Origin: Pleurocapsa sp. PCC 7319
GTDB lineage: Bacteria > Cyanobacteriota > Cyanobacteriia > Cyanobacteriales > Xenococcaceae
Assembly (NCBI RefSeq): GCF_000332195.1
Contig: NZ_KB235922.1
Span: 6,235,322-6,299,321, forward strand
DNA: 64,000 bases
Direction of reading: 5' to 3'
The notes beneath the pieces were generated by a model. That model was not told the origin of the DNA. It saw only the letters and a program-made list of their open reading frames with translations, and ran no database searches. Positions 15,505-55,935 of this stretch are shown piece by piece. The position numbers and the translations under genes are program-made. Each line of letters starts with the position of its first letter. Position 1 is the first letter of the stretch.

Positions 15505-15688
15505 TTAGCCTTTAGCCTTTAGCCTTTAGCTTTGGATTTCGTGTCCTCTCTTCTATTACGTAGTAATAAAGAGTCTCAATTAATTAGTAGTTCGGGCGGT
15601 CAACATTTGAAACAAGCCCCCGCTCTTCCGCCCTCAAAATTTACGGGTTTATTAGCTAATGGCTAACAGCTAATAGCTAAAGGCTTTT
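15505..15688. repeat. heptamer-armed element with a structured core (porin upstream region)
   Basis: The left arm 15505-15532 is TTAGCCTTTAGCC-type heptamers and the right arm 15653-15688 is the inverted form (AGCTAATGGCTAAC...). The core has two strong hairpins. CTCTT-TATTAC at 15548-15559 pairs with GTAATA-AAGAG at 15563-15573 with one bulged C, and GGGCGG at 15594-15599 pairs with CCGCCC at 15628-15633. The core differs from those at 36.0 and 55.8 kb. The block fills the region upstream of the porin start, so it may be part of its leader. Confidence 0.6.
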
Positions 15689-19271: not shown

Positions 19272-19434
19272 TTTTGGCTTTTAGCTTTTAGCTTTTAGCC
19301 TTTAGCCTTTAGCCTTTAGCTCTTAGCCTTTAGCCTTTAGCCTTTAGCCTTTAGCTCTTAGCCTTTAGCCTTTAGCCTTTAGCCTTTAGCCTTTAGCTTT
19401 TAGCCTTTAGCCTTTAGCTTTTAGCTTTTAGCTG
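19272..19434. repeat. (TTTAGCY)n heptanucleotide tandem array
   Basis: About 23 consecutive seven-base units, mostly TTTAGCC with TTTAGCT and CTTAGCC variants. This is the longest array in the window. Shorter relatives lie at 15505-15532, 20927-20953, 36016-36049, 36141-36170, 55794-55819 and 55913-55935. Confidence 0.85.
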
Positions 19435-19475
19435 CTTGTAGTACAATATGGGTATTAATAATTACTATTGTTTAG

Positions 19476-19883
19476 ATGCAAAGCTTTACCGATCTCAAAG
19501 TCTGGCAAAGAGCTCATGAATTCACCCTGCTAATCTACAAAGCTACAGCTAACTTTCCTAGCGAAGAAAAATTTGGTTTAACTAGCCAATTAAGAAGAGC
19601 AGCAGTTAGTATTGAGTCAAACATAGCTGAGGGAAGAGGTAGAGGCAGCGACAAAGATTTTGGCAGATTTATATCTATGGCAATGGGTAGCTGTTTTGAA
19701 CGTGAGAGATGCGTCGTTTTACGGCGCAAATCTAATCACGTTGTTGAAGTTAAAAGCCAGATATTAATTGCTAGAGACTTAAACTTTATTTCAGCAACAC
19801 AATCAGATTTTCTAGAAGTAAAGGTTGATGAAGTATCAAGGATGCTAAACTCTTTAAAGATAAAGCTAATGGCTAATAGCTAA
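19476..19883 (+). CDS. four-helix-bundle protein (S23/IVP family) with a palindrome insertion
   Basis: The 135-residue protein begins FTDLKVWQRAHEF and has the family block LTSQLRRAAVSIESNIAEGRGR and later LIARDLNFIS. The family includes proteins encoded in 23S rRNA intervening sequences and Avd of diversity-generating retroelements; it binds nucleic acid in some members. Between MAMGSC and the third helix an extra stretch of about 15 residues (FERERCVVLRRKSN) is encoded by a 44-base palindrome at 19699-19742 that keeps the frame. The last codons (KLMANS) are read from the heptamer right arm. It may or may not still be functional. It lies opposite to the surrounding operon. Confidence 0.85.
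   Translation: MQSFTDLKVWQRAHEFTLLIYKATANFPSEEKFGLTSQLRRAAVSIESNIAEGRGRGSDKDFGRFISMAMGSCFERERCVVLRRKSNHVVEVKSQILIARDLNFISATQSDFLEVKVDEVSRMLNSLKIKLMANS
19699..19742. repeat. 44-base palindrome inside the four-helix gene
   Basis: AACGTGA at 19699-19705 pairs with TCACGTT at 19736-19742. Inner arms GAGATGCG and CGCAAATCT pair imperfectly around a TCGTTTTACGG centre. It encodes residues not expected in this family. Similar-looking bases TGTTTTGAA before it and TGTTGAA after it could be a short target duplication. Confidence 0.5.
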
Positions 19884-19982
19884 TGGCTTTAAACAAATAC
19901 TCTGATTGTTATTTACATAAACAACTTGAAATTAAATCAAGCTAATGGCTAATGGCTTACAGCTAATGGCTGGAAGCAAAGC

Positions 19983-35881: not shown

Positions 35882-36241
35882 TTAAATTAGCCAGTTTCTT
35901 AACTTAGATGAAATCGTATCAATGATACTGGTGGCTAAAATTAAAATAATCAAGATAGCGCAAACTTTACCATAGTCGAAAGATTGAAAGCTTTGATAAA
36001 GAAACGGCTACGCCCTAGCTATTAGCTATTAGCTCTTAGCTCTTAGCTTCAATCAAATAGAGTCTTAAACTCTACCTGATTGTCGACGACCTAAGAGGTC
36101 GGAGTCTTAAACTCAATTACGCTTTTAGCAGTCAAACCAAGGCTAAAAGCTAAAGGCTAAAGGCTAAAAGCTTTAAGATAAAGTGAAACACCAATTCCCC
36201 CTGCACCAACAATTCCCAGCACAGAGGCAGCACGAACATTA
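35882..36241 (-). pseudogene. phnE: phosphonate ABC permease (phnE) 3' fragment, interrupted
   Basis: On the minus strand, 36241 down to about 36178 reads NVRAASVLGIVGAGGIGVSL, the conserved C-terminal loop of PhnE. After an inserted repeat element (36002-36167) the frame resumes as YQSFQSFDYGKVCAILIILI and ends RNWLI with a stop at 35882-35884. The N-terminal two thirds are missing because a TnpB element lies at the upstream break. The phosphonate uptake gene is thus destroyed while phnM next door is intact. Confidence 0.8.
36002..36167. mobile_element. heptamer-armed structured element, copy 1 (inside phnE)
   Basis: The left arm is TTAGCTA/TTAGCTC heptamers (36016-36049); the right arm is GGCTAAA/AGCTAAA (36141-36170). 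The core has four hairpins: TAGAGT-CTTAA-ACTCTA (36058-36074), CGACC-TAAGA-GGTCG (36087-36101), GAGT-CTTAA-ACTC (36102-36114) and GCTTTTAGC/GCTAAAAGC (36121-36150). Imperfect direct repeats flank it: AAGCTTTGATAAAG at 35988-36001 and AAGCTTTAAGATAAAG at 36168-36183. Copy 2 at 55794-55935 keeps the loops but has different, still paired stems. Confidence 0.7.
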
Positions 36242-36264
36242 GTCTTTTCTATATGATGATAGAC

Positions 36265-37479
36265 ATGATTAGAGTAGCCCAAAAGATACGAATTTACCCA
36301 ACTTTTGGGCAACAGCAACAATTAGCAAAAGCTATGGGCTGTTGTCGGTGGTGGTGGAATTATGCTCTAAATGTTTGTAATCAAACTTATAAAGAGACTG
36401 GCAAAGGAATATCTCGTAGTGGCTTAAATGCTTTGTTGCCTAAGCTAAAGAAAGAGTACGAATGGCTAAAAACCGATGTTTATTCTCAATCTTTGCAGCA
36501 AACAACTCTCAATCTATCTCGTGCTTTTATCAACTTTTTTGAGAAAAGAGCTAAGTATCCTAAATTCAAATCAAAACACAAAAAGCAGTCTGTAGGTTTT
36601 CCTCAATCAGTCAGAATAGAGGGCGACTATATTTATCTGCCAAAAATCAAGTTAGTAAAAGCTATATTTGACCGTAGGTATGTAGGTAAGATAAAGACTG
36701 TTACTGTCACGCTTGATAGTGATGATAGATATTTTGCTTCTATTATCTATGAAGTTGAGGCTTGTTTTAGATCTGGTAATAGTGACAAAATTTTAGGAAT
36801 CGACCTTGGAATTAAAGATTTTGCCATAGTCCACGATGGAACTAAAACCAGTAAATATGCCAATCCAAGACACATTAAAAAGCATGAGAAAAACCTAGCT
36901 AGAAAACAAAAGAAGCTAGCTCGTAAGCAACTAGGGAGTAGAACCAGACAAAAAGCCAAGAAATTAGTAGCTAAGGTTCACACACGTATTAGCAATTCCC
37001 GTCAAGATTTTCTGCACAAACTGAGTAGAAAACTGACAAACGATAGCCAAGTCATTGTGGTAGAAAACCTCAATGTGAGGGGATTAGTGCGTAACCTAAA
37101 GCTCGCTAAAGCAATATCTGATGTAGGCTGGGGAATGTTTGTAAACTTCCTCAGTTATAAACTTCGTAGAGAAGATAAAAAGCTCGTTGAGATTGATAGA
37201 TTTTTTCCCAGTTCTCATATCTGCCCTGAATGCCTAACTCAACAGCCAAAGATGGATTTATCTGTTAGAGAATGGATTTGTATCAACAGTGCGTGCAATG
37301 CTCATCACGATAGAGATGAAGCAGCAAGCAAAAACATTAGGGCAGAAGGAATCAGAATACTACAGGCGGATGGTGCAGCCGTCTCTGCTAGTGGAGGGAG
37401 CGTAAGACAAGATCGGGGTCGCAAGACCAAGGTAGTGCAGCACCCAGCGAAGCTAGAAACTACCTGCTCAACGAAGTAG
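36265..37479 (+). CDS. tnpB: IS200/IS605-family TnpB, RNA-guided nuclease
   Basis: A TnpB of about 404 residues (start taken at ATG 36265, MIRVAQKIRIYP; ATG 36253 adds four residues). Counting from 36253, the RuvC acids are Asp184 in GIDLGIKDF, Glu271 in VVENLNVRG and Asp355 in HDRDEAASKNI, all intact. The zinc ribbon CPEC...CINSAC is between them. No tnpA is present, so it cannot move itself without help. Its end region should encode the guide (omega) RNA. It lies at the break of phnE. Confidence 0.9.
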   Translation: MIRVAQKIRIYPTFGQQQQLAKAMGCCRWWWNYALNVCNQTYKETGKGISRSGLNALLPKLKKEYEWLKTDVYSQSLQQTTLNLSRAFINFFEKRAKYPKFKSKHKKQSVGFPQSVRIEGDYIYLPKIKLVKAIFDRRYVGKIKTVTVTLDSDDRYFASIIYEVEACFRSGNSDKILGIDLGIKDFAIVHDGTKTSKYANPRHIKKHEKNLARKQKKLARKQLGSRTRQKAKKLVAKVHTRISNSRQDFLHKLSRKLTNDSQVIVVENLNVRGLVRNLKLAKAISDVGWGMFVNFLSYKLRREDKKLVEIDRFFPSSHICPECLTQQPKMDLSVREWICINSACNAHHDRDEAASKNIRAEGIRILQADGAAVSASGGSVRQDRGRKTKVVQHPAKLETTCSTK

Positions 37480-55793: not shown

Positions 55794-55935
55794 AACTATT
55801 AGCCATTAGCTATTAGCTTCAATCAAATATGGTCTTAAACCATACCTGGGCAGTAGACATTGCATAGGCAATGGGGTCTTATACCCAATAACGCTTTTAG
55901 CAGTTAAACCAAGGCTAAAAGCTAATAGCTAAAAA
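55794..55935. mobile_element. heptamer-armed structured element, copy 2
   Basis: Perfect inverted arms TTAGCTATTAGCTT and AAGCTAATAGCTAA bracket a core with four hairpins: TATGGT-CTTAA-ACCATA (55828-55844), CATTGC-ATAG-GCAATG (55858-55873), GGGT-CTTAT-ACCC (55874-55886) and GCTTTTAGC/GCTAAAAGC (55893-55922). Compared with copy 1 the loops and linkers TACCTG, ACGCTTTTAGCAGT and AAACCAAGGCTAAAAGC are kept, while the first three stems differ on both sides in matching pairs. It has no coding capacity. Confidence 0.7.

What the first reader, a model, noticed from the sequence alone, without database searches (positions are those of the whole stretch)
36002..36167. Two-copy structured element with compensating stem changes (with 55794-55935)
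The copies at 36.0 and 55.8 kb share linkers and loops (CTTAA/CTTAT loops, TACCTG, ACGCTTTTAGCAGT, AAACCAAGGCTAAAAGC). Their first three hairpin stems differ, and each difference is matched on the other side: TAGAGT/ACTCTA versus TATGGT/ACCATA, CGACC/GGTCG versus CATTGC/GCAATG, GAGT/ACTC versus GGGT/ACCC. Within a copy, hairpins 1 and 3 have nearly the same stem sequence, with a variable segment between them. This points to selection for folding, as RNA or single-stranded DNA, in a non-coding mobile element. I know of no described family with this layout.
Basis: partly seen in the sequence, partly recalled or inferred. Interest (0 to 1): 0.78.

Follow-up and report, generated by a model that had tools for sequence, protein, structure and literature searches.

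The report
Folded mobile repeat of cyanobacteria
The two matching DNA stretches are copies of a small non-coding jumping element with a conserved folded core, found in many cyanobacteria, which inserts next to one fixed four-letter word and probably moves as single-stranded DNA.

Summary
The copies at 36.0 and 55.8 kb belong to a non-coding repeat family with 67 covariance-model matches in this genome (39 at E<=1e-4). The core (hairpin 1, GAC, hairpin 2, hairpin 3) was found in 104 of 388 genomes, 50 of 149 genera, of the order. Covariation on an alignment not fitted to the structure is strong (score 0.533 against 0.162 shuffled). Hairpin 1's AA/CC 'internal loop' becomes G.T pairs on the other strand (48 A.C, 0 G.T of 70 cells), so I place the fold on the minus strand.

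Empty sites show insertion. Near the window's genus the unoccupied site has one RTAA, or RTGA in two relatives. In Nostocales the left end differs (TTGAAG), and two sites show insertion directly before ATAA without target duplication. Read on the minus strand, this is insertion 3' of TTAY with an end in TCAA, the rule published for IS608.

Best explanation: a non-autonomous, IS200/IS605-like single-strand element moved in trans. No enzyme was identified. Elhai et al. 2008 on cyanobacterial small repeats is not held, so part may already be described.

The parts
35996..36181 (.). Copy 1, whole (subfamily A), from the left word ATAAAG to the right word ATAA
   Evidence: Coordinates; ends by comparison with near-identical copies
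36006..36014 (.). Left terminal hairpin GGC-TAC-GCC (reduced in this copy; GC-rich hairpin in most copies with an intact left end)
36016..36047 (.). Left heptad arm (TAGCTAT/TAGCTCT repeats)
36050..36082 (-). Hairpin 1: outer stem CAATCA/TGATTG, AA/CC (G.T pairs on the minus strand), inner stem TAGAGT/ACTCTA, loop CTTAA
   Evidence: Covariation; strand; minus-strand DNA fold
36087..36101 (-). Hairpin 2 (CGACCT-AAG-AGGTCG), sequence free to vary
   Evidence: helix 2: all 5 pairs show changes on both sides
36102..36114 (-). Hairpin 3 (GAGT-CTTAA-ACTC), same apical hairpin as hairpin 1
36121..36150 (-). Hairpin 4 (GCTTTTAGC/GCTAAAAGC), absent or replaced in other subfamilies; its 3' side can also pair with the left arm
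36141..36171 (.). Right heptad arm, complementary to the left arm
36178..36181 (.). Right word ATAA: the target word (TTAT on the minus strand)
55799..55931 (.). Copy 2, recognisable part: left arm, hairpins 1 to 4, right arm; ends not recognisable
55820..55886 (-). Core of copy 2: hairpin 1 (55828-55844, outer stem broken), hairpin 2 (55858-55873), hairpin 3 (55874-55886)
   Evidence: Core model R2 match 55817-55889, E 5.3e-11

Best explanation
A non-coding mobile element that moves as single-stranded DNA by a route like that of IS200/IS605 elements (HUH/Y1 transposase), with the transposase supplied in trans. Shown: a multi-copy family with fixed ends and a conserved multi-hairpin core, inserted next to RTAA; in the Nostocales form no target copy is made. 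Inferred: on the minus strand it inserts 3' of TTAT/TTAC and ends in TCAA or a similar word; hairpins 3 and 1, which share one apical hairpin on the two sides of a variable segment, are the two palindromes that a transposase dimer grips; the heptad arms are a later clamp that pairs the two ends and changes length by repeat slippage.
For: Empty sites: L007 against own-genome L303 ungapped over 239 nt; L148 against L304; L155 against six relatives ungapped, with one RTAA (four) or GTGA (two) at the site. In Nostocales L283 and L293, each against two relatives, read G|ATAA when empty and G|TTGAAG...TTTG or TTAG|ATAA when occupied, so no duplication. Three further genera have left words TTAAC, TTGAAG, ATTAAAG and right word ATAA. 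IS608: insertion 3' of TTAC kept on the left flank, C_R TCAA, purine disfavoured at +1 (PMC5934647, passages). Base at +1 on the minus strand: pyrimidine at 24 of 26 subfamily-B sites. Fold placed on that same minus strand. Hairpin 3 lies 11-12 nt from the target end in G320 and G139.
Against: No transposase was identified: 27 Y1 genes in this genome; of those whose ends I inspected (a part of the 27) none has these ends or a TTAY target. GTAA words in the flanks also tend to follow a purine (35 of 55), so the +1 bias is partly background; in Nostocales it is 15 of 21 (my count). The orientation expected for lagging-strand insertion was not significant (8 of 26 positive GC skew, p 0.076; 20 of 29 on one strand, p 0.061). 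Guide sequences were not tested. The left ends vary between lineages. The fifth Nostocales comparison (L276 against L343) is not clean. L171 is not a precise insertion.
Confidence: 0.55

Rival explanations
1. The element spreads through a folded RNA that is copied back into DNA (retro-mobilisation), as I recall Elhai et al. 2008 suggested for small dispersed repeats of Nostoc.
For: Strong conserved fold; A.C on + that reads as G.U on a minus-strand transcript; copies with a missing left hairpin (L007, L135).
Against: In subfamily B left and right ends go together: 26 complete copies against 29 exact right ends, so no general 5' truncation. Outside the AA/CC positions G.T and A.C are equal (18 to 19). 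No reverse transcriptase was searched for.
Confidence: 0.15
2. It is a REPIN-like element moved by a RAYT (TnpA_REP): GTAG stands before hairpin 2 in many copies.
For: GTAGAC before hairpin 2 in many copies; GTAG repeats and RAYT-type Y1 proteins are reported from cyanobacteria (PMC3733652, PMC6006769, passages).
Against: GTAG is not kept (GTCG, GAAG, GCAG, GGGG, GGAG in other copies), partly pairs in hairpin 1, and no inverted GTAG-hairpin pair was seen.
Confidence: 0.12
3. The matching stems arise by hairpin-templated repair or template switching, not by selection for the fold; the mobile element is real but the fold has no function.
For: Equal G.T and A.C in the stems; the heptad arms change in step on both sides.
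Against: Unpaired GAC, loops and spacing are conserved across genera while hairpin 2 stems change freely; A.C 48 to G.T 0 at two positions.
Confidence: 0.12
4. A DDE-type MITE with a 4-bp target duplication RTAA.
For: RTAA on both sides in the window's genus.
Against: In Nostocales the target is not duplicated; left words differ from the target in other genera; no terminal inverted repeat, only subterminal heptads, by eye.
Confidence: 0.03
5. The minus-strand RNA is an omega-RNA-like guide used by a TnpB in trans.
For: A target word at one end and a structured segment up to the other end is the layout of IS605 guide RNAs (recalled); tnpB genes are present, one 72 nt after copy 1 (36253-37479).
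Against: No match to any Rfam family at gathering score; no transcript known; no consistent tnpB neighbour was looked for.
Confidence: 0.06

Closest known systems
IS200/IS605 elements (IS608) and their non-autonomous derivatives
   Same: Insertion 3' of a fixed TTAY word kept on one side, no target duplication in the Nostocales form, TCAA at the other end, two similar hairpins inside.
   Different: No gene; no partner found; heptad arms and a third variable hairpin; left word varies between lineages.
Small dispersed repeats (SDR) of Nostoc, Elhai et al. 2008
   Same: By recall: small, often set in tandem heptads, hairpins with compensatory changes, mobile. Citing papers seen only in passages.
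   Different: By recall the units are 21-27 nt; here the unit is about 90-500 nt with defined ends. Sequence comparison was impossible: paper not held.
REPIN/BIME repeats with RAYT transposases
   Same: Short palindromic non-autonomous repeats, a Y1 enzyme expected (PMC3116915, PMC3733652, passages).
   Different: No inverted pair of GTAG hairpins; defined target RTAA.
Heptad stem of the Nostoc tRNA-Leu intron (P6b)
   Same: Two complementary 7-nt repeat arrays pair, and the repeat class differs between lineages while the fold stays (PMC4476775, passages).
   Different: Lies in a group I intron stem; no hairpin core and no RTAA insertion.

Membership tests
IS200/IS605 (non-autonomous) | Insertion 3' of a fixed short target, without duplication | tested here: met
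   Nostocales: two sites, four comparisons. In the window's genus both sides read RTAA, so duplication cannot be told from an element end of the same word
IS200/IS605 (non-autonomous) | Cleavage words C_L and C_R (IS608: TTAC and TCAA) | tested here: met
   Nostocales TTAT and TCAA on the minus strand; other lineages have TTAY, TTAA or TTAAT at the second end
IS200/IS605 (non-autonomous) | Subterminal imperfect palindromes recognised by TnpA | tested here: inconclusive
   Hairpins 1 and 3 are candidates; binding not testable
IS200/IS605 (non-autonomous) | A cognate TnpA element with the same ends | tested here: inconclusive
   27 Y1 genes; ends inspected for a part of them, none matches
MITE of a DDE transposase | Terminal inverted repeats and target duplication | tested here: not met
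   No duplication in Nostocales; no terminal inverted repeat by eye
REPIN/BIME | Two inverted REPs, each GTAG plus hairpin | tested here: not met
   Read by eye; GTAG not kept, no inverted pair
IS110-derived element with bridge RNA | Ends shared with an IS110 element | tested here: not met
   The IS110 beside one left end begins at its own end in seven other copies
Rfam RNA families (including HEARO and other known guide RNAs) | Score at or above the gathering threshold | tested here: not met
   0 matches in the window and in eight related loci; four weak matches at E up to 5 far below threshold in three loci
SDR of Elhai et al. 2008 | Published SDR consensus sequences | not testable with these tools
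   Paper not held

The most novel reading that the evidence does not exclude
A distinct, order-wide class of coding-free transposon whose identity is a folded single strand: two copies of one apical hairpin around a freely variable hairpin, later clamped by self-complementary heptad arms whose sequence turns over in step on both sides. It is served by a dedicated, still unrecognised HUH enzyme that reads TTAY, and its minus-strand transcript may guide a TnpB in trans to re-cut the emptied site.
Probability: 0.15. Interest if true: 0.82.

Novelty: new variant of a known kind. Interest (0 to 1): 0.6.

Why it matters
It would tie the well-known but poorly explained heptad repeats of cyanobacterial genomes to a structure-defined mobile element with a precise insertion rule, and give a natural series of compensated hairpins for testing which folded strand a single-strand transposase reads. 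It also warns that covarying hairpins between cyanobacterial genes need not be regulatory RNAs.

Tried and rejected
IS110 as partner: the IS110 beside a B-type left end (L224) is inserted there; seven other copies begin at query 66-69, its own end. Y1 elements of this genome: the ends inspected do not match. A Y1 element (L147 and L223, one place) and its Rippkaea plasmid relative (L382) carry a GGGGTRTTGAACCCC hairpin after tnpA that resembles hairpin 3 (2 hits, one place, in 148,495 bases of 29 Y1 loci). The hairpins shared by the two ends of that element are different ones, so this stays a lead; Stanieria (L383) and Chondrocystis (L384) do not show it by eye. Tolypothrix PCC 7601 plasmid against NIES-3275 as a test of recent movement: the PCC 7601 record repeats much of its gene set, so it was dropped. 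Reading frames restored at Nostocales sites: only short, probably spurious frames. Orientation test: not significant. Viral contigs: 0 pattern matches.

Rows dropped: from the 35 stretches, L268, L280, L284, L289 (other phyla) and L300 (already in hand) were left out; L271, L279, L281, L291 also of some later scripts. In one search the words TTGAAGAA and GATAA were themselves the search anchors; the left word was found at 21 of 31 places, the right word at all but three, and at least two of the right words (L277, second place in L297) look spurious. For A4, L087, L099, L100, L103, L105 and near-identical rows were left out. A5 was chosen by hand. In one search the right end printed for L393 and L394 is an internal GATAA, and one G320 row (L386) is cut before its left end.

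Full report
Observation. The two window copies are real and related (79% identity, E 5.3e-23), and the three compensating stem differences are as stated. Copy 1 also has an outer stem on hairpin 1 (CAATCA/TGATTG). In copy 2 that stem is broken and no element ends can be recognised by eye.

Copy number and anatomy. A DNA search of the own genome (7.39 Mb, 10 contigs) gave 67 matches at E<=10, many of them heptads only; nine, copy 1 included, are 97-100% identical. A covariance model from seven copies (R1) gave 67 matches at E<=1, a few of them weak or overlapping on the other strand, 39 of them at E<=1e-4 (150 of 2753 candidates scored). Subfamilies differ in heptads and hairpins: A (TAGC arms, copy 1), B (TATAAGC/TGTAAGC arms) and C (TAGT arms with hairpin 4 changed to GTTTTTAGT/ACTAAAAAC). 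For B, 29 exact right ends and 36 left ends (32 exact, 4 with one mismatch) were found, making 26 complete copies of 190-516 nt. Left terminal hairpins vary with matching changes (GCGGC/GCCGC, AGGGC/GCCCT, AGGAGC/GCTCCT, ACGGC/GCCGT), but that scan accepted perfect stems only. Two A copies (L010, L011) have lost the stretch between hairpins 1 and 3 at their shared sequence.

Covariation. On a MAFFT alignment of 35 hairpin-1 sequences (A4, not fitted to the structure) 90.7% of cells pair; the score is 0.570 against 0.219 +- 0.019 (0 of 500 shuffles), at most 0.110 with slid partners; the number of pairs with two-sided change (8 of 12) is reached by 128 of 500 shuffles. On 25 hand-chosen diverse cores (A5, MAFFT) the values are 93.2%, 0.533 against 0.162, at most 0.192 slid, 15 of 20 pairs with two-sided change. 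On 82 distinct model-aligned copies (A6, which leans towards the structure) they are 93.7% and 0.528 against 0.155. The copies are related, so these are not probabilities.

Strand. In structured RNA G.U is tolerated and A.C is not (general knowledge). In the twelve hairpin-1 pairs of A4, G.T and A.C are equal, 18 to 19. But the two positions read as an AA/CC internal loop on + are A.C in 48 of 70 cells, G.T in 0 and Watson-Crick in 15; in A5 the same two positions give 13 A.C to 1 G.T, 31 Watson-Crick of 50. On the minus strand these are G.T pairs, and hairpin 1 of copy 1 folds as one 14-bp stem against two stems on +. Over the 20 pairs of A6 the count is 29 G.T to 62 A.C, 28 to 39 without the pair next to that loop. 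I place the fold on the minus strand, with the caution that AA/CC is largely one inherited motif.

Distribution. R1: 20 of 27 genomes of the family at E<=0.1; 15 of 291 of the order at E<=1e-4. Core model R2: 104 of 388 genomes of the order at E<=1e-4, 50 of 149 genera, 12 candidates scored per genome, so copy numbers there are lower bounds. An exact pattern hit 35 stretches of named genomes: 4 in other phyla, without hairpin 1 by eye, the rest cyanobacterial, among them Nostoc, Tolypothrix, Calothrix, Desmonostoc, Mastigocoleus, Prochloraceae and Pleurocapsales LEGE 10410. The LEGE 10410 contig has the length of G004:C101, so the window's genus is probably that of LEGE 10410. A Nostoc-type query hit 44 of 72,556 plasmid records, all of genera I know as Nostocales. 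Viral contigs: 0. Rfam: none at gathering score.

Insertion. Joined flanks were compared with uninterrupted relatives. L007 (A; inside a transposase-like frame, label by eye) aligns ungapped over 239 nt to L303 of the own genome; L148 to L304; L155 (B; inside a Uma2-like gene, label by eye) ungapped to six relatives, whose site reads GTAA, ATAA or, in two, GTGA. Joining L155 at one GTAA gives a 242-residue open frame. L171 is not precise: split matches suggest about 132 nt missing beside it. In Nostocales the left word is TTGAAG and the right word GATAA (anchored on these words). Two copies (L283, L293), each against two relatives, show that the empty site reads G|ATAA and that nothing is duplicated, save possibly the single G; a third (L276) is not clean. 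In G320 (7 of 8 rows; the eighth is cut), G375 (7 of 7) and G139 (5 of 5) the left words are TTAAC, TTGAAG and ATTAAAG; the right word ATAA is seen at the end in 8 of 8, 5 of 7 and 5 of 5 rows. So RTAA on the right is the target and the left word belongs to the element. A few copies in or near the window's genus have RTCA on one side only (L010, L041 left; L003 right).

Mechanism. On the minus strand the rule reads: insert 3' of TTAT/TTAC, end in TCAA or a similar word. IS608 inserts 3' of TTAC, keeps it on the left flank, has C_R TCAA and disfavours purines at +1 (PMC5934647, passages). In B the +1 base on that strand is a pyrimidine at 24 of 26 sites (0.496 expected from composition; 35 of 55 GTAA words in the flanks also follow a purine); in Nostocales at 15 of 21 (my count). 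Hairpins 1 and 3 share one apical hairpin around a variable hairpin 2, and hairpin 3 lies 11-12 nt from the target end in G320 and G139. Shown: family, fold, ends, target, lack of duplication in Nostocales. Inferred: single-strand intermediate, enzyme class, role of hairpins 1 and 3, role of the arms. Not found: the enzyme. The orientation test was not significant.

Known work. A heptad stem whose repeat class changes while the fold stays is known from the Nostoc tRNA-Leu intron (PMC4476775, passages). GTAG repeats and RAYT-type proteins occur in cyanobacteria (PMC3733652 and PMC6006769, passages). Elhai et al. 2008 is not held; I know it by recall and citing passages. Six core words gave no paper. 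Of the other searches I saw listings and starts of abstracts, and none of those named this unit. The claim of novelty is limited by that.

Noticed in passing
window 19277-19887: A gene for a 23S rRNA-intervening-sequence protein (19476-19883, Pfam PF05635) stands between a long TTTAGCC heptad array and a complementary short one.
   Followed up: no
window 15505-15530 and 15652-15684: Two complementary heptad arrays flank about 120 nt without the hairpin core.
   Followed up: no
window 36253-37479: A tnpB-like gene (PF01385, PF07282) begins 72 nt after copy 1.
   Followed up: partly
L010:1430-1600, L011:1480-1650: Two copies lack everything between hairpins 1 and 3, joined at the shared hairpin sequence.
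   Followed up: partly
L124, L200, L201: Several subfamily-B copies carry large palindromic inserts between hairpin 3 and the right arm, up to 516 nt in all.
   Followed up: no
L223:3380-3470 and L382:2405-2500: An IS605-type element has a GGGGTRTTGAACCCC hairpin after its tnpA that resembles hairpin 3; possible link to the missing enzyme.
   Followed up: partly
L368:1400-1600: Two cores stand in tandem, the second without its left arm and directly after the first one's GATAA.
   Followed up: no
NZ_CP064883.1: The plasmid record of Tolypothrix PCC 7601 repeats much of its gene set, perhaps an assembly duplication.
   Followed up: no
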